Positions 19,431-64,000 of a stretch of DNA of 64,000 nt are shown here, one piece after another. This DNA is from Gari tellinella. Lineage: Eukaryota; Mollusca; Bivalvia; Cardiida; Psammobiidae. The notes beneath the pieces were generated by a model, which did no database searches, was not told the DNA's origin, and worked only from the letters and a program-made list of their open reading frames with translations. The stretch covers positions 101,239,038 to 101,303,037 of the forward strand of contig OV277856.1 in assembly GCA_922989275.2 (NCBI GenBank), in the 5' to 3' direction. The translations under genes were made by a program, and so were the position numbers. Every line of letters starts with the position of its first letter. The stretch's first letter is position 1.

Positions 19431-19610
19431 CAGTGAAACCTCTCTATAACAGCCACTAATGTGTGATACTTTATTTGAGTTTTCGACAGGTGACTGCTTA
19501 AAGCATGGTGACAGTAAATGGTTTACTGTCACCTTGCTTTTAGCTGACACCTGTCATTTATACAATTAATTAGTCCTTGTTTTAGGGGCCGTTATAGAGA
19601 GGTTTTACTG
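19431..19610. mobile_element. Family D MITE (reference description)
   Basis: CAGTGAAACCTCTCTATAAC on the left and GTTATAGAGAGGTTTTACTG on the right, with TA on both sides, 180 bp. The inner hairpin is CTTAAAGCATGGTGACAGTAA and its inverse, a different core from A/B/C. Confidence 0.85.
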
Positions 19611-19977
19611 TACCCTTAAATTAAATTTGCAAACAGTTTGAACCTAGATCAACGCGGCTGTCATTATCTGTGTTTTTGATGTTTCCATTGCGTTAAGGAT
19701 CGTTTAAACTGACACAAATAAGGTTTTGTCAATTGTAATTGGTATTAACCGGGTGTTCACCTCACTGTTCATAACCCCAAGAACGCTTAAACTCATAAGG
19801 ATCGATTACTCCTAAGTACACTGGAGCCTTCCATAAAGCACAAAGCAGCATTCCAATTGAGATAGTAAAACTGGTATAAAATAAACACAATTTTCAACAC
19901 ACGTCACATAAAGAATATTTATTGCGCTCACAGCTTCGGCTTTACTAACGAGATACTGTTTGTGAGAAAACATAGTA

Positions 19978-20170
19978 CAGTAGAACCTTTCTATTACGAC
20001 CACTAAGTTGTGTCAAATATTAATCGGTTAATACAAATGACTGCTTAAAGCAATTTGAAAGTGAAACAGAAAGCTCGTACAGGAGCTTTCTGTTTCACTT
20101 TCACATAGCTTTAAGCTGTCACCTGTCCTTTATACGGACAATTAGCCTTATATTTAGTGGTCGTAAATTA
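19978..20170. mobile_element. Family D MITE
   Basis: CAGTAGAACCTTTCTATTAC start, stem with CAGAAAGCTCGTACAGGAGC; the right end fades after GTGGTCGTAAAT. Confidence 0.78.
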
Positions 20171-41484: not shown

Positions 41485-42968
41485 TCAAGATTTTGGAAAA
41501 AATTGTTTTAGGGGTGAAAAAAAGTTTATTATTATTTTCTTGCTGATGGGACAAAGCCAAAACAAATGGTTAATAGTTTCTGGATCTGTTTTGCAGAAGG
41601 TACATAATGGGCTATCAATATAATTAATTTTGTATAGATGATAGTTTGTGCCAAGTATTCTGTGAACTACTCTAAACTGAAACCATTGTATATCTGTATT
41701 TTTTGTTATAATAAAAGGTATCTCAAATATGCATTTCCACTCATTTTCCTTAATTTTCATTCGTAATGTTTTTTCCCACGTTTGTTTACAGGTCGGCTGG
41801 ATAGTATTTCTATTTAAACATTTGTAGAAGGATTTTGAACCTTTAGCATCTTTCAAAATTAATTTAATATAAGGTGGAAAAACTGGTTTCTGAACAGGAT
41901 TTAAATCTCCTTTTCCTACTTGTATATTTGTAAGTCCTTTCTCAATGGCTAGTTTAATTCCGTTATAAATTAGATAATTGATAGGTAGATTATATTTGAT
42001 TTTAAATTCATTAAAAGTCATGATTGCACCATTTTGATTTACCAAGTCTCCAATGCAATGTAAACCATATTGGAACCATGAGTTTAAGAAAACACTCTTG
42101 TGTCCAACTAAAATCATGTGATTATAAAATAATGGATAATCTTGAATGGCATCCTTATTAAAAATATGTTTATCTATTATATTTGAAAATGCCATAAAAG
42201 TTTCAGCCCAAAATCTATTGGTACATTTACTTGCAAATAGTTCATAATAGTGCTTTCCACAATTTAACATTTTGTTTACATCTATATAATTTTTTATTAT
42301 ATCCACCCATCCTCCATTATTCGTTATTAACCTTCTGATCCATGTTGTTTTGAGTGAGTCTATAAATGCTCTTAAGTTGACCATGTTTAAGCCCCCTTCA
42401 TATTCTTTTACAATAACAGATTGTTTTATTTTGTGACTTCCGCCCCAGATGTAGTTATAAAATATACTTTGTAAGTTGTTGATCATTGACTCTGTAGGCT
42501 TCGGCAAGGCAAGAAACAAATGATTTAGTTTAGCGACCAACAAACTTTTGATGACAGTTATTTTGCCTATAGGTGTTAATATTCTCCTGTTCCATTTTCT
42601 TATTGTTTCTTCTATTTCAGTTATTTTTGGTTTATAATTTAAATTAATAATCTTATCCAAATCAATATGAAAACGTATTCCTAGCATCTCAAATTGAGTT
42701 TGGTTCCATGTTAATTTCCATTTAGTTTTAATTGTGTCAGAACTATATTTCTTCTTACCTATCCAAACTACTTTTGTTTTTTCATAATTAACTTTTAGAC
42801 CGGAAATATCGGAAAATCTTGAAAGAGTATCGAGCATTTCATTAAGAGATTCGCTTGAACCATCTAAAATTACACTTGTGTCATCAGCAAACTGAGACAA
42901 TTTATATTCAGTTTGATTTATTGTTATACCTTTAATATTAGGGTTTGATCTTATTTTAATCGATAGGA
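41485..42968 (-). pseudogene. LINE ORF2 fragment: end of reverse transcriptase plus C-terminal zinc knuckle
   Basis: Open from about 42958 to the stop at 41485, with the first Met at 42900 (471 residues). It opens with QFADDTSVI, the catalytic reverse-transcriptase motif with F for Y as in L1/Tx1 elements. GLKVNYEKTKVVWIG, NLTPIGKITV-like and KLNHLF blocks of that clade follow. Near the end is C433-X2-C436-X8-H445-X4-C450, the knuckle found in these ORF2 proteins. A frameshift in the homopolymer-rich stretch around 41485-41500 moves the rest of the protein into the next frame. Confidence 0.88.
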
Positions 42969-57077: not shown

Positions 57078-57702
57078 CAGGGTGTTAAGAAAGTTCGTTC
57101 CTATTTTTGCACACATGTCTAAAAAGAAAACTACAAGACGGTTACGACTGAAACCTTTTACTCAATGCCAAGAGGGTGCTCCCTTGCCTTTTAACTCATT
57201 TTTAAGACGCTTAGGCATAAAATGGATCAATGAAGTAAGGTGATCTGGAGACAAACTGTCCCAGGCGTGATGTAGGCGACGTCATGGGGCTTTCATTGTT
57301 CTAGGGGGTGGGTCATTGTACGCCTCGGTGTCCAGAATACTCCAGAGATTTCTATAACATTTAAATCTGGCGAGTTCCCTGGCTGGCCATTCTTCTTTGT
57401 CGAATAATTTCTCTAGATTGTCTCGACACCATTGCTGTTTGCTGGTGGTTGTGTGTGGTGGGGCACGATCTTGTTGAAAAACCGCTCGATTGGAATCTGG
57501 GACAAGTTTCCTACTGCTTATTTTACCGTCAGAAGCAGATTTCATGAGTGCAGGTTTAAGTTCTTTTTTAAGTATTTGACTATGATAGTACTCAGTGTAT
57601 AAAAATGATAGTACCACACTGTGAAAATATTACGTCGATCGGAAAGGTTTGGGGATGGAATTAAGGTAATCAAAAATAGGAACGAACTTTCTTAACACCC
57701 TG
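57078..57702 (-). mobile_element. Internally deleted Tc1/mariner element with intact 31-bp terminal repeats
   Basis: The left end begins CAGGGTGTTAAGAAAGTTCG (57078-57108) and the right end is its exact inverse (57672-57702). Both ends are flanked by TA (57076-57077 and 57703-57704), the expected target duplication. At 625 bp it is about half the length of a full mariner. It encloses the transposase remnant described next. Confidence 0.92.
57150..57617 (-). pseudogene. Tc1/mariner transposase C-terminal half, decayed
   Basis: The minus frame carries FQQDRAPPHT with the second catalytic aspartate (D50 of the frame) and ends LWSILDTEAYNDPPPRTMKAP. The usual NSPDLN-I-E segment with the third acidic residue is present only in another frame between WPA and LWSILD, so two compensating small indels flank it. 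An in-frame TGA at 57282-57284 then interrupts the C-terminus, which continues through a SPDHLT..MPKRL stretch to about 57152. The N-terminal DNA-binding half and first catalytic aspartate are missing. It cannot make active enzyme; its ends could be moved in trans. Confidence 0.88.
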
Positions 57703-58488: not shown

Positions 58489-58668
58489 CAGTAAAACCTC
58501 TCTATTACGACCACTAAGTTGTGTTAATTATTAGGTGTTTAAAACAGATGGTTGCCTTAAAGCAAGGAGGAGCTTTCTGTTTTACTGTCACCTTGCTGTA
58601 AGTTGTCATCTGTCTTTTATTCAACTGATTACTTTCTTTTTAGTGATCGTTATAGAGAGGTTCTACTA
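58489..58668. mobile_element. Family D MITE
   Basis: CAGTAAAACCTCTCTATTAC start and TATAGAGAGGTTCTACTA end. One stem arm is mostly deleted. Confidence 0.8.
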
Positions 58669-60549: not shown

Positions 60550-60794
60550 CAGTGGAGAAAACTTTAGTCTTTCCCAATAAACGCGTTTACGCTAAATCTA
60601 GTATTTCCAATGCAAACAGTTCGGAGCCAGATCAGACGCCGGGTTACCGGCGTCTGACCAAGTTCCAAACTGTTTGCCACTCATATCAAAATGAATAGGT
60701 ATAACTATCCAAAAGTTGACATTTTCAACATTTTAGTTCAATGCGTTTGCGTTTCGTTTGCGTTGAAACGGGAAATAATAACTTTTCTCCTCTG
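60550..60794 (-). mobile_element. Family A MITE, copy 26
   Basis: Complete diverged copy. A further fragment with the CCCAATACACATGTTTGTGC arm follows at about 60805-60965. Confidence 0.85.
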
Positions 60795-60987: not shown

Positions 60988-61195
60988 CAGTAAAACATCT
61001 CTATTACGGCCACTACATCGTAGGTTAATTGATTGTTATAAAAAAAAGCAGGCGACAGCTTAAAGCAATGTGACAGTAAAACAGAAAGCTCCTGAAGGAG
61101 CTTTCTGTTTTACTGTCACCTTGCTTTAATCAGTCTCCTGTCGTAAATTCTTATAATAAACACAATGACGTTGTCGTAATAGAAACGCTTTACTG
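60988..61195. mobile_element. Family D MITE, last MITE before the gene cluster
   Basis: CAGTAAAACATCTCTATTAC start. A perfect stem (GTGACAGTAAAACAGAAAGC, TCCTGAAGGA, then the inverse) fills about 61068-61130. Right end CTTTACTG. Confidence 0.85.
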
Positions 61196-61915
61196 CATAA
61201 TTACATTTGCCTTTAAGAAATAAATCAAAGTATTAGAGGGGTGAACAAAAGAGAGAGAAAGGCGTATTTAGTAACAGGATTAGAGTAATCTATTTTATGC
61301 AGTATGTTGTAATGAATCATTGAACATCGACTGTCAGTAGTATTAGGGTCTCTTTAGGTGTAAACAAAGATGATGTAATCGACGCCATTTTGGATGACCT
61401 ACTTTCTAAAAATAGAAAAAGCACGTGGGTCTATATTTAGCCCAGGGTGAAGGTCTTGTGGGGGTAGCCATATTGGATTTGGGTTTGAACGGGTAAAAAA
61501 AAGCGGCCATGTTGAATTATTGAATTTTCACGAATCTGGGTCTACACGGTATACAGAACTGACCTGTTAACGATCTGTTAAGATAGCCAGGGACATTGAG
61601 CGTCAGGTTCTTCCCTATCAGAGGGGAATCTTAGAGGTGTTGCATATAAGGTGTGTTCACATCGATGTTTTCAGTTCAAATGACTGAGATGTTTCTCCTT
61701 CATGCGCGGATAGAGGGCGCAATGTTTAAAATGACAGCATCGCTATATTTAGCTGGCCGGTGTTACAAGTATTGCATCAGCCGAGAAAAGGCCTAGAGCA
61801 TTAACCCCCGACCAGGGAGAGTCCGAAAACACATTCACTCCAGGAAATGGCAGTCAGGCGTACTATTTTACAAGTCCAAACATGTCTGATTCCATCAAAG
61901 ATCCATACATGTATG
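61196..61915. other. Non-coding left border of the compact gene cluster
   Basis: No open frame of note on either strand and no MITE. It contains three further CTA(A/T)nTAG boxes (61406-61415, 61431-61440, 61743-61752) like those in the promoters of the following genes. None is followed by a recognisable gene. It may be the untranscribed edge of the integrated element. Confidence 0.45.
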
Positions 61916-61992
61916 TCTATAAATAGAAAATGACGTTATGTTTGCCCACTCCAACTGGTATATAAGAGTGTAGGCAACAGTCATATTCATTC
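61916..61992 (+). promoter_or_regulatory. Promoter of the PC4-like gene
   Basis: TCTATAAATAGA at 61916-61927 matches the MEF2 consensus YTA(A/T)4TAR. TATATAAG at 61959-61966 is the TATA box and TCATTC at 61987-61992 is an initiator with A 30 nt below it. This predicts a 26-nt leader. The same order recurs before the next two genes. Confidence 0.65.
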
Positions 61993-62014
61993 ACAGTTAC
62001 GCGCATCGTACAGA

Positions 62015-62503
62015 ATGGATAACCACTCTAGCTTTGCCTTGGGGAATCAGCGATACGTAAAAGTGACTGAATGGAAAGGCGAAGTGAGAGTCGATCTAAG
62101 AGAATGGCTCAATGATAAACCCAGTAAGAAAGGCATCAGTTTACCCTTAAGGCGGTGGAAAATTTGGGTCGACTGCATCGAATGCTTAGACGAAGCCTTG
62201 GCAGAGAAGAAACACTACAGTAGTCACTTGGGAGGCAACGTTTATTGCACAGTAGACGAGGGCAGCGTGTGTGTGAGCATTAGACAATATTGGAAACCAC
62301 AGGACGAAGTGGTGCCGACTAAGAAAGGCTTGTGTTTAAGACCCAACGAATACGCCAAATTGAAAGAAATGATACCGGTCATAGGAAAACAATTGCCTGA
62401 ATTGAACTCGATTGTACCCTGTTACTTGCAGAGCGATCATATGAACCAGTTGGGCGCTTTGCGATGCGCCGAGTGCAACCCCAATTCACACGCGGACTGG
62501 TAA
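62015..62503 (+). CDS. Protein with two PC4/p15 coactivator-like domains
   Basis: An intronless 162-residue frame. PC4/p15 proteins bind single-stranded and melted promoter DNA and assist RNA polymerase II; a nuclear role is inferred by family. Residues 7-62 fit one PC4 unit (FALGNQRYVKV, then VRVDLREW, then KKGISLPLRRW). Residues 72-122 fit a second (GGNVYCTV, then VSIRQYW, then TKKGLCLRPNEYAKLKE), so the domain is duplicated in tandem, whereas animal PC4 has one. The C-terminus carries a CAEC pair of unknown role. The ATG has A at -3 and G at +4 and lies 26 nt below a predicted initiator. Only 20 nt separate the stop from the next gene's upstream box, and no AATAAA lies in that gap. Domain call firm; viral versus host origin uncertain. 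Confidence 0.82.
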   Translation: MDNHSSFALGNQRYVKVTEWKGEVRVDLREWLNDKPSKKGISLPLRRWKIWVDCIECLDEALAEKKHYSSHLGGNVYCTVDEGSVCVSIRQYWKPQDEVVPTKKGLCLRPNEYAKLKEMIPVIGKQLPELNSIVPCYLQSDHMNQLGALRCAECNPNSHADW

Positions 62504-62522
62504 TATCCAATCTGACACGGTT

Positions 62523-62596
62523 ACTATAAATAGTCCACCAATCAGAATGGAGACAGCAGTATAAAAAGGCAGAGGTGACTAAGATCCACTTCACTC
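62523..62596 (+). promoter_or_regulatory. Promoter of the BIR gene
   Basis: ACTATAAATAGT at 62523-62534, a CCAATCAG box just after it, TATAAAAAG at 62560-62568 and an initiator TCACTC at 62591-62596. The A of the initiator is 33 nt from the TATA start and 21 nt before the ATG. The upstream box starts only 20 nt after the PC4-like stop. Confidence 0.68.
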
Positions 62597-62613
62597 TTCA
62601 CTGAAACACCGAT

Positions 62614-63018
62614 ATGAATACTACAGATGCTTGTCTGGTAAACAACATGTCCCAGAACAAGTATTACGAACATAGACTGAAAACGTTTGACAGTTGGCCA
62701 AAACAGATGATTCCTAACAAATACGACTTGGCGAAATGCGGGTTCCTATACGCGGGTCACGGCGATCAAGTGAGGTGTTTTCAATGCGGTGTCGGTCTAC
62801 GTGATTGGGAACGAACGGACGACCCCTGGAAAGAACATTACAAATGGAGCCCAAACTGCGATTATTTGAAAATGGTTGGGTGGAACGATAACGTCAAGAT
62901 AGCCGACGTAGGATTTGGACAAGTTACCAAACCACCCAACAGTGGCTTTGGATTTGGAGTCACTCTGACAAATTCCCAGAAACCCTTTGGACCTAATACA
63001 AACTCAAATTTATTCTAA
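62614..63018 (+). CDS. BIR-only inhibitor-of-apoptosis-like protein
   Basis: An intronless 134-residue frame with one BIR domain at about residues 20-88. The zinc ligands are complete and canonically spaced: C55, C58, H75 and C82 (C-X2-C-X16-H-X6-C). The GVGLRDWE stretch followed by DDPW matches the groove of type II BIRs that bind the N-terminal tetrapeptide of caspases or IAP antagonists, so a cytosolic anti-apoptotic role is likely by family. There is no RING, CARD or second BIR; the C-terminal 40 residues are Gly/Asn/Pro-rich and low in complexity. A second ATG at codon 12 could also start the protein. An AATAAA lies 71 nt after the stop. Single-BIR proteins occur in viruses and in expanded bivalve IAP families, so origin is open. 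Confidence 0.88.
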   Translation: MNTTDACLVNNMSQNKYYEHRLKTFDSWPKQMIPNKYDLAKCGFLYAGHGDQVRCFQCGVGLRDWERTDDPWKEHYKWSPNCDYLKMVGWNDNVKIADVGFGQVTKPPNSGFGFGVTLTNSQKPFGPNTNSNLF

Positions 63019-63088
63019 ACTGTCCATGGTGTTCGTTTTGTAATATCAATGTATTGTACGATGTTATGTAATATTGGCGCTATATCGA

Positions 63089-63094
63089 AATAAA
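63089..63094 (+). terminator. Polyadenylation signal AATAAA after the BIR gene
   Basis: AATAAA 71 nt past the BIR stop, followed by a T/G-rich stretch. No such signal is seen between the PC4-like stop and the BIR ATG, so both transcripts may end here. Confidence 0.6.
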
Positions 63095-63135
63095 CATTAA
63101 ATCTATTTTATGCACTTGTGATTTGTCCAATTACC

Positions 63136-63157
63136 AGAGAGAGAGAGCGAGAGAGAA
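63136..63157. repeat. GA microsatellite
   Basis: Short GA run with one C interruption between the BIR polyadenylation signal and the death-domain promoter. Confidence 0.85.
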
Positions 63158-63173
63158 CATCCTCTGACGTAGT

Positions 63174-63300
63174 TCTATAAATAGATAAACAGGTCTGGGC
63201 ATGTATCAGTCAGATAAATGAGTGTAGCCAATCCCTATTCTTTTGATGACGTCATACAAAGCGTATAAAAAGAGACGTTTCTGGTGCCACAGTATCAGTT
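63174..63300 (+). promoter_or_regulatory. Promoter of the death-domain gene
   Basis: TCTATAAATAGA at 63174-63185, CCAAT at 63228-63232, a perfect CRE (TGACGTCA) at 63247-63254, TATAAAAAG at 63264-63272 and the initiator TCAGTT at 63295-63300. TATA-to-initiator distance is 33 nt, as in the BIR promoter. Confidence 0.7.
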
Positions 63301-63316
63301 CGACCTCGAGAGTACC

Positions 63317-63691
63317 ATGAGTAACAATCAAAGTATCGAGCACAGTACTTTAACAGACGACGAGTTGCTACAGTATTCTAAAGAACTCGGATTTAACTGG
63401 CAGCTCTTTGCGTTTCAGCTGGGTTATAAACTAACTCAAATAGACGCTTTGAAAAAGACATACTCTCAACATTACCAAACGTTATTGTATGTGATGCTGT
63501 TTAAGTGGTACGAAACAGTGGTAAATTGCTCCAAAGAAAATCCGAAGTGGCTTCTAGCGGCCGCTTTTTCACGCATCGACGACCAATGTACTGCCCTAAA
63601 GATTTTGGGGAGTTTTGACTTGATAAACACTGCGAAAACGCTCCGACCTTGTGTAGACACTGAACGTCATATACGTCAAATTCGCTTTTGA
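63317..63691 (+). CDS. Death-domain protein
   Basis: A 124-residue intronless frame starting at the ATG in context taccATGa, 20 nt below the predicted initiator; an upstream in-frame GTG is not needed. Residues 13-97 have the spacing of a six-helix death domain: DELLQYSKELGFNW, then FAFQLGYKLTQIDAL, then LLYVMLFKWYE, then PKWLLAAAFSRI. Such domains pair with death domains of adaptors and receptors in apoptosis or innate signalling. There is no enzyme or membrane segment, so it could be an adaptor or a decoy. The stop is TGA. The same frame then stays open into the TBP-like ORF after nine bases, which suggests a bicistronic message, stop readthrough or a broken fusion. Domain assignment rests on pattern, not a profile search. 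Confidence 0.72.
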   Translation: MSNNQSIEHSTLTDDELLQYSKELGFNWQLFAFQLGYKLTQIDALKKTYSQHYQTLLYVMLFKWYETVVNCSKENPKWLLAAAFSRIDDQCTALKILGSFDLINTAKTLRPCVDTERHIRQIRF

Positions 63692-63700
63692 GAAAAGAAA

Positions 63701-64000
63701 ATGATCACCAACGTTGTGGTGATGACCGAGACACATTGTGACATTGATCTAACAGTGCTAACCCGTAAAACTGAAAATATGATATACGATCCAGCCCGGT
63801 ACTCCGGTGCCCAATGGAAACATCGAAAGATAGGTGGACATTGCATGGTGTTTTCTACCGGAAAGTTAATGATCAACGGAAAGGTCCATTCTATTACTGA
63901 TGCCAAACGGAGACTTAGACGTTATGCCAGACGCATTCAACAACTAGGTTGGCCAGTCGCATTATCTACCATTCAAGTGGTGACCGTATCGGCTTCTTTC
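63701..64000 (+). CDS. TATA-binding-protein-like protein, partial (runs off the window)
   Basis: One hundred codons, open to the last base. The frame follows the first of the two direct repeats of the TBP core: ITNVVV and CDIDL, then ENMIYDPARY, then GGHCMVFSTGKLMINGK, then AKRRLRRYARRIQQLGWP. Of the two DNA-kinking phenylalanines of repeat 1, the second is kept (F51 in VFSTGK) and the first is tyrosine (Y34). Divergence from animal TBP is large, so it is not the host housekeeping gene. TBP-like proteins are known in some large DNA viruses, for example African swine fever virus. There is no TATA box, initiator or CTATAAATAG box between it and the death-domain frame. The second repeat would lie beyond the window. 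Confidence 0.8.
   Translation, partial: MITNVVVMTETHCDIDLTVLTRKTENMIYDPARYSGAQWKHRKIGGHCMVFSTGKLMINGKVHSITDAKRRLRRYARRIQQLGWPVALSTIQVVTVSASF

What the first reader, a model, noticed from the sequence alone, without database searches (positions are those of the whole stretch)
61916..64000. Compact intronless cluster of TBP-like, PC4-like, BIR and death-domain genes: likely edge of an integrated large DNA virus or virus-derived element
Four same-strand single-exon frames occupy 2 kb after 61 kb of gene-poor MITE-rich DNA. Two mimic RNA polymerase II initiation factors and two belong to cell-death control. Large DNA viruses often carry this mix; TBP-like and IAP proteins are both known in African swine fever virus. 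I do not recognise a described virus with this gene order. A host cluster of single-exon genes is possible. The element would extend right of the window.
Basis: partly seen in the sequence, partly recalled or inferred. Interest (0 to 1): 0.88.

Follow-up and report, generated by a model that had tools for sequence, protein, structure and literature searches.

The report
Jumping satellite carrying cell-takeover genes
The four genes sit in an 8.75-kb piece of jumping DNA of the virus-like Maverick type whose 2-kb gene block occurs at least 33 times almost unchanged across this genome; no copying or inserting enzyme was found in it, so it likely borrows those from larger relatives with matching ends, and it is predicted to bring its own gene-starting factor and cell-death blockers.

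Summary
The four frames are real, but they are not the edge of a large virus. Its family here has 486-bp inverted ends beginning AGTAGTATTAGGG, with perfect 6-base target duplications in 8 of 8 elements checked. The 2-kb block is full-length in 33 of 42 matches, 96-100% identical.
Elements with these ends fall into size classes. All 16 paired elements of 7.8-9.0 kb carry the block next to one end. None of the 42 listed matches falls in the 8 elements of 14.4-19.1 kb; polymerase B and integrase genes were found in pieces of those. The 8-kb class keeps a packaging-type ATPase only 36% identical to the large class's, although the ends match (98% where compared), so it looks like a long-standing satellite.
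PC4, BIR, death-domain gene and the large class's polymerase share one promoter plan (MEF2 site, TATA at -53 to -56); the ATPase and its neighbour use TTATAAGAG. I infer an early/late switch run by the element's own TBP and fused PC4 dimer. Binding, mobility and capsid are untested.

The parts
61330..61335 (.). Presumed 6-base target-site duplication, left side (ACTGTC)
   Evidence: Lies directly left of the terminus. The right end of this copy lacks its last 41 bases, so the duplication cannot be verified here; it is perfect in 8 of 8 other elements checked.
61336..61821 (+). Left terminal inverted repeat, 486 bp, begins AGTAGTATTAGGG
   Evidence: Copy alignments start at 61336 in four of seven other copies; inverted copies match positions 1-486; the own right end matches 42-486 inverted at 97.3%.
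61406..61415 (+). MEF2-consensus site CTAW4TAG in the inverted repeat
61431..61440 (+). MEF2-consensus site in the inverted repeat
61743..61752 (+). MEF2-consensus site in the inverted repeat
61917..61926 (+). MEF2-consensus site CTATAAATAG, -98 of PC4
61959..61966 (+). TATA box, -56 of PC4
   Evidence: a TATA at a similar position is compatible with 11 of 19 N-extended relatives
62015..62503 (+). Tandem-PC4 protein, 162 aa (predicted fused PC4 dimer, C-terminal conserved C/H/C/C cluster)
   Evidence: Pfam; 264 homologues; invariant columns; model pLDDT 81; fold matches
62524..62533 (+). MEF2-consensus site, -90 of BIR
62560..62567 (+). TATA box, -54 of BIR
62614..63018 (+). Single-BIR protein, 134 aa, only a BIR match
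   Evidence: Pfam; solved BIR domains
63089..63094 (+). AATAAA polyadenylation signal after BIR
63175..63184 (+). MEF2-consensus site, -142 of the death-domain gene
63247..63254 (+). CRE palindrome TGACGTCA
   Evidence: one site, not significant alone (102 of 2000 shuffles have at least one)
63264..63271 (+). TATA box, -53 of the death-domain gene
63317..63691 (+). Death-domain protein, 124 aa
   Evidence: Pfam 1.1e-5; PIDD/RIPK1 death domains 0.0019; no homologue in the protein search
63701..64000 (+). TBP-like protein; frame continues to 64210 outside the window (169 aa); nine bases after the death-domain stop, with no MEF2, TATAWAAR or TTATAAGAG site in the 160 bases upstream

Best explanation
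The four genes are cargo of an 8.75-kb Maverick/Polinton-type element in which no polymerase or integrase gene was found; it is likely a satellite that is copied and inserted by 16-kb relatives with the same ends, and is predicted to help take over the cell with its own transcription factors and cell-death blockers. Shown: inverted ends, 6-base duplications, many near-identical dispersed copies, size classes with different gene content, and two promoter types. Inferred: (1) the helper's integrase and polymerase act on the shared ends; (2) host MEF2 and host TBP start the early genes (PC4, BIR, death domain plus TBP, and the helper's polymerase); (3) the element's TBP and fused PC4 dimer then direct host RNA polymerase II to the TTATAAGAG promoters of the ATPase and its 117-aa neighbour; (4) the BIR protein binds caspase-type or IAP-antagonist peptides and the death-domain protein is a decoy, so the cell survives long enough; (5) the element's own ATPase loads its DNA into helper capsids.
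For: Termini AGTAGTATTAGGGYC: 59 forward and 53 reverse exact sites in 1.6 Gb, against 0 and 2 for the reversed pattern. Perfect 6-base duplications in 8 of 8 elements checked, five of them with the gene block. Block at full length in 33 of 42 matches, 96-100% (40 of 75 candidates scored). Of 42 paired elements (from 100 listed of 112 termini), all 16 of 7.8-8.95 kb hold the full block 513-565 bp from one end; none of the 42 listed block matches falls in the 8 of 14.4-19.1 kb. Large class, in pieces of five of those eight: polymerase B 3.2e-45 and 1.3e-38, integrase core 2e-12 with chromodomain; polymerase and integrase both in the 14.4-kb copy. Own element: ATPase above two Pfam cut-offs. ATPases 36% identical over 193 aa and 117/116-aa neighbours 57%, while both ends of the 14.4-kb element are 98% identical to the window's; none of 40 scored ATPase matches (109 candidates) lies in the eight large elements (one search compared by eye). 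Promoters: MEF2 at -98/-90/-142/-108 and TATA at -56/-54/-53/-54 for PC4, BIR, death domain and large-class polymerase; TTATAAGAG in 4 of 4 upstream 60-mers of the ATPases and their neighbours, chance 0.00025 each. PC4 fold: best viral hit adintovirus MOSUB.
Against: No capsid gene was identified in either class: the 418-aa large-class protein matched nothing usable. The protease match is just under its cut-off (20.9 against 21.3 bits). Dependence on the 16-kb class is inferred from shared ends only. After insertion the block decays close to neutrally: pN/pS against the window's copy 0.92, 0.80, 0.75 and 0.38 for PC4, BIR, death domain and the first 200 bases of TBP, and 7 of 16 other copies have at least one broken or truncated frame. 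So no copy is shown to serve the host, and function can only be argued from young copies and from conservation between species. The MEF2 reading was made after seeing the motif. In relatives with 100 or more bases of upstream reading frame a MEF2 site is possible in only 1 of 5, whereas TATA is possible in 11 of 19. The late motif is absent upstream of 8 of 8 other large-class frames tested. TBP has no clear promoter of its own here. The MOSUB match is at 18% identity. Block absence from the large class rests on a capped match list and on pieces.
Confidence: 0.66

Rival explanations
1. Passive deletion product: an ordinary non-autonomous Maverick derived from some larger relative, whose remaining genes are leftovers with no present role.
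For: Near-neutral decay after insertion. A graded series of smaller elements (3.7-7.3 kb), some with shortened ATPase frames, exists. Four matches hold only positions 1398-2001 of the block. The 14.4-kb large copy itself lacks part of what the 16-kb pieces hold.
Against: ATPase and 117-aa genes are strongly diverged from the large class (36%, 57%) and 0 of 40 scored ATPase matches lie in a paired large element, so the parent is not that class. All four frames are intact in 9 of 16 other copies (TBP checked over 200 bases). The listed PC4 relatives, 46-75% identical, keep one protein plan.
Confidence: 0.2
2. Second genome segment: the 8-kb and 16-kb classes are two segments of one multipartite Maverick-type virus, packaged apart and needed together.
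For: Near-identical ends and similar 3-kb non-coding end regions on both classes, different gene content and shared promoter types.
Against: Both classes encode a packaging-type ATPase and the 117/116-aa protein, which segments would not need twice. The 16-kb class has polymerase, integrase, ATPase and protease-like genes and may be self-sufficient. No particle or infection data.
Confidence: 0.09
3. Edge of an integrated large DNA virus (asfarvirus- or giant-virus-like).
For: The named viral TBP fold matches are mostly large DNA viruses, including the B263R homologue of abalone asfa-like virus.
Against: Both element ends found within 8.75 kb; dispersed copies of the same unit; Maverick-type ends and duplications.
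Confidence: 0.01
4. [quoted passage not shown]
For: Single exons; the hard clam paper reports 51 intronless IAPs and reads them as retroposition (PMC7831173, section 7 and passages).
Against: The promoters move with the genes (three TATAWAAR sites in 15 of 16 copies), four genes move as one block, and the block lies within inverted repeats with 6-base duplications. The modelled TBP relative is only 24-26% identical to eukaryotic TBPs.
Confidence: 0.02

Closest known systems
Maverick/Polinton elements and adintoviruses of animals
   Same: Inverted ends, 6-base duplications, packaging-type ATPase; larger relatives with polymerase B and integrase; a tandem-PC4 protein whose best viral fold match is MOSUB of Branchiostoma lancelet adintovirus.
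   Different: The window's class has no polymerase or integrase gene among its frames of 100 aa or more and adds TBP, BIR and death-domain genes; no named adintovirus TBP appears among the 50 TBP fold matches listed (several rows unnamed).
Viral TBP of beta- and gammaherpesviruses (UL87, ORF24) for TATT late promoters
   Same: Works-like comparison only: a virus-encoded TBP-type factor steering host RNA polymerase II to a variant TATA box of late genes (PMC7498053, PMC8360532; titles and start of abstracts seen in listing).
   Different: Here a minimal 169-aa TBP with a PC4 partner; preference for TTATAAGAG is inferred, not tested; no homology claimed.
Virophages and satellite viruses
   Same: Small element sharing ends with, and likely depending on, a larger one (recalled comparison).
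   Different: It is integrated in an animal genome and resembles its helper; no particle known.
Intronless single-BIR IAP genes and 'G3' BIR+PC4 type of hard clam and mussels (PMC7831173)
   Same: Single-exon BIR genes scattered over chromosomes, and a protein type joining BIR and PC4; here a BIR gene and a PC4 gene are neighbours.
   Different: That paper reads them as retroposed host genes and domain co-option; I infer that a gene model merging this element's PC4 and BIR genes (110 bases apart) could give G3. Not tested on hard clam DNA.

Membership tests
Maverick/Polinton (autonomous) | Long terminal inverted repeats beginning 5'-AG | tested here: met
   486-bp ends, AGTAGTATTAGGG; that 5'-AG is typical is recalled
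Maverick/Polinton (autonomous) | 6-bp target-site duplication | tested here: met
   8 of 8 elements with both ends intact that were checked; the window's own copy cannot be checked because its right terminus lacks 41 bases
Maverick/Polinton (autonomous) | DNA polymerase B in the element | tested here: not met
   None among the frames of 100 aa or more of the window's element; present in the large class. Hence filed as a non-autonomous Maverick-type element
Maverick/Polinton (autonomous) | Retroviral-type (rve) integrase in the element | tested here: not met
   Same calls; integrase with chromodomain only in the large class
Maverick/Polinton (autonomous) | Packaging-type ATPase | tested here: met
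   Adeno_IVa2 24.6 bits (cut-off 21) and Pox_A32 25.0 (cut-off 22.8)
Maverick/Polinton (autonomous) | Adenovirus-type protease | tested here: inconclusive
   Large class only: 20.9 bits against cut-off 21.3; none found in the window's element
Maverick/Polinton (autonomous) | Double-jelly-roll capsid and penton | tested here: inconclusive
Adintovirus | MOSUB (tandem PC4) accessory protein | tested here: met
   Foldseek E 1e-7, TM 0.66, 18% identity to Branchiostoma lancelet adintovirus MOSUB; rank 33 in the same list is a second adintovirus MOSUB at E 0.13. That MOSUB defines the group is not established
TBP | Two-lobe TBP fold | tested here: met
TBP | Binding to TATA-type DNA | not testable with these tools
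   The saddle phenylalanines appear kept in alignment (residue roles recalled), one as Tyr or Phe
PC4 | PC4 fold able to bind single-stranded DNA | tested here: inconclusive
   Fold met; binding not testable
IAP (BIR) proteins | BIR zinc-binding domain | tested here: met
   Pfam 5.7e-25; solved BIR domains
Large DNA virus (asfarvirus-like) | Large genome beyond the window | tested here: not met
   Both ends of the unit found, 8.75 kb

The most novel reading that the evidence does not exclude
A satellite (or second segment) of a Maverick-type animal virus that carries its own transcription-initiation switch, a minimal TBP plus a covalently fused PC4 dimer, turning host RNA polymerase II from MEF2/TATA early promoters to TTATAAGAG late promoters of both itself and its helper, while blocking cell death; bursts of this satellite are also a source of the intronless IAP expansion and 'BIR+PC4' genes reported in bivalves.
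Probability: 0.3. Interest if true: 0.92.

Novelty: new variant of a known kind. Interest (0 to 1): 0.8.

Why it matters
If right, animals host Maverick satellites in the way protists host virophages, with an early/late transcription switch made of only two proteins. It would also reassign part of a well-known bivalve gene-family expansion (intronless IAPs, read as host adaptation by retroposition) to a mobile virus-type element, which can be tested directly in published clam and mussel assemblies.
Full report
What is there. Four same-strand frames are confirmed: tandem PC4 (62015-62503), a single BIR (62614-63018), a death domain (63317-63691) and a TBP (63701 to 64210, the last part outside the window). 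The BIR and PC4 assignments are strong, the death domain modest (1.1e-5; PIDD and RIPK1 death domains at 0.0019), the TBP strong once complete (4.2e-22).

Element boundaries. In the window's own assembly (1.6 Gb, 80 contigs) the 2-kb block has 42 matches; 33, the window's included, span all of it at 96-100% identity on many contigs (40 of 75 candidates scored, so a lower bound). Against seven other copies, similarity to the window's copy begins at 61336 in four (L004, L005, L007, L008), at 61334 in L006 and further in for L003 and L009; the sequence at 61336 reads AGTAGTATTAGGG. The first 486 bases recur inverted at the far end of elements (40 of 318 candidates scored). Eight elements were checked and all eight have both exact ends and a perfect 6-base duplication. 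The window's copy ends at window-frame 70086, with the last 41 bases of its right repeat missing. These are hallmarks of Maverick/Polinton elements (recalled).

Size classes. The exact terminus occurs 59 times forward and 53 times reverse (reversed-pattern control 0 and 2). Pairing the 100 listed sites gives 42 elements with 16 sites left over: 17 of 3.7-7.3 kb, one of them with a 605-base piece of the block; 16 of 7.8-8.95 kb, all with the full block 513-565 bp from one end; one of 11.9 kb with a partial block; 8 of 14.4-19.1 kb, in which none of the 42 listed block matches falls. Of the 33 full blocks, 16 lie in such exact pairs; the other 17 have altered or unlisted ends, like the window's own.

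Gene content. Right of the TBP the own element has a 538-aa packaging-type ATPase on the minus strand (window-frame 64606-66222), a 117-aa frame (66317-66670) and about 3 kb without frames of 100 aa or more but with 198-bp and 152-bp tandem repeats. The large class was read in pieces of five of the eight elements: a polymerase B frame, a 116-aa relative of the 117-aa protein (57%), a 313-aa ATPase (36% over 193 aa to the small-class one), 121 aa, integrase with chromodomain, 136 aa, 418 aa, a protease-like 136-aa protein just below cut-off, and 111 aa. Polymerase and integrase occur together in the 14.4-kb copy, which lacks the 418-aa and protease-like region seen in the 16-kb copy on C13. Both ends of the 14.4-kb copy are 98% identical to the window's end; the non-coding end region is 97% identical to that of the 16-kb copy on C9 and 94% to that of the 14.4-kb copy. 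Near-identical ends beside strongly diverged genes argue for a separate lineage kept in step with a helper, not for a recent deletion; none of 40 scored small-class ATPase matches (109 candidates) lies in the eight large elements (one search compared by eye). In two elements of 6.6 and 6.7 kb (L039, L016) the gene block is absent and the region that follows the TBP lies close to the end repeat, so the block behaves as a cassette.

Promoters. Perfect MEF2 sites CTAW4TAG number 6 in the last 2.7 kb against 3 in the 61.3 kb before it (0.13 expected; 0 of 2000 shuffles reach 6); three lie in the inverted repeat. I noticed the motif first and tested after, but the three sites in the repeat have other letters than the three that caught my eye. 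PC4, BIR and death-domain genes and the large-class polymerase share MEF2 (-98, -90, -142, -108) and TATA (-56, -54, -53, -54). In relatives whose frames run upstream, TATA fits at 52-63 bases in 11 of 19, against 0.92 on average for shuffled peptides (highest 4, in 1000 shuffles); MEF2 fits in 1 of 5 long enough. The ATPase and 117/116-aa genes of both classes have TTATAAGAG at -36 to -54 instead; 8 of 8 other large-class frames lack it upstream; the 61.3 kb left of the element holds one TTATAAGAG. Death domain and TBP are nine bases apart, and TBP has no MEF2, TATAWAAR or TTATAAGAG site in its 160 upstream bases; one relative (P0133) could encode a TATA at -81/-79 of TBP.

How it likely works. 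Shown: mobility signature, copies, gene content, promoter types. Inferred: helper enzymes act on shared ends; host factors start early genes; element TBP and PC4 serve late promoters, as viral TBPs of beta- and gammaherpesviruses do for TATT promoters (start of abstracts in listing); BIR and death-domain proteins delay cell death; the ATPase packages satellite DNA. Copies decay almost neutrally after insertion (16 copies compared with the window's, 9 with all frames intact, 7 with at least one broken or truncated), as expected of a mobile element and not of host genes.

Link to bivalve IAP expansion. The hard clam paper (PMC7831173; section 7 whole, other passages) reports 51 intronless IAPs, 42 of the 49 in one clade being single-exon BIR genes, read as a retroposition burst, DNA transposons enriched around IAP genes, and a BIR+PC4 'G3' type called an innovation of hard clam and mussels. 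Another paper counts 7,091 and 6,453 Mavericks in two hard clam assemblies (PMC8905726, passage). An oyster study reports few intronless IAPs, and says that those of C. virginica lack retroposition machinery (PMC8917759, passages). I infer that relatives of this element explain part of the clam pattern; not tested on their DNA.

Noticed in passing
window 41485-42900, minus strand: 471-aa frame with reverse-transcriptase zinc-binding domain (1.6e-8) and the tail of RVT_1 (26.4 bits, below its cut-off 29.6): likely a 5'-truncated LINE-type fragment.
   Followed up: partly
window 57282-57617, minus strand: 111-aa frame with Tc1/mariner-like words by eye; no Pfam match.
   Followed up: partly
window 60612-60677 and 61012-61177; also about 19500-20130, 58490-58620: Palindromic MITE-like repeats recurring through the window; the peptide words TVWSQIRRRVTRRLI show in several frames.
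   Followed up: no
G000 C17:57015746, C8:84429418, C1:117914848, C1:1208379: Four matches begin at the same block position (1398, just before the death-domain gene), suggesting a subclass that carries only the death-domain/TBP pair.
   Followed up: no
L012:44-816 and L014:1629-2401 (G000 C11 14.4-kb element): Inverted, 99.9% identical stretch beyond the 486-bp ends: the 14.4-kb large copy has longer inverted repeats and a rearranged end.
   Followed up: no
L038:3090-3446 (+) and L038 3340 (-): 118-aa frame without Pfam match and a third TTATAAGAG, also in L040, in the end region of small elements.
   Followed up: partly
L001:10001-10174: A phage-like contig (IMG/VR) with a single-PC4 gene, 39% identical to the PC4 query.
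   Followed up: no
G000 C13:57892541 and C13:49268518: Two further copies whose end repeat matches only from position 42, as at the right end of the window's copy: a recurrent terminal variant or loss.
   Followed up: no
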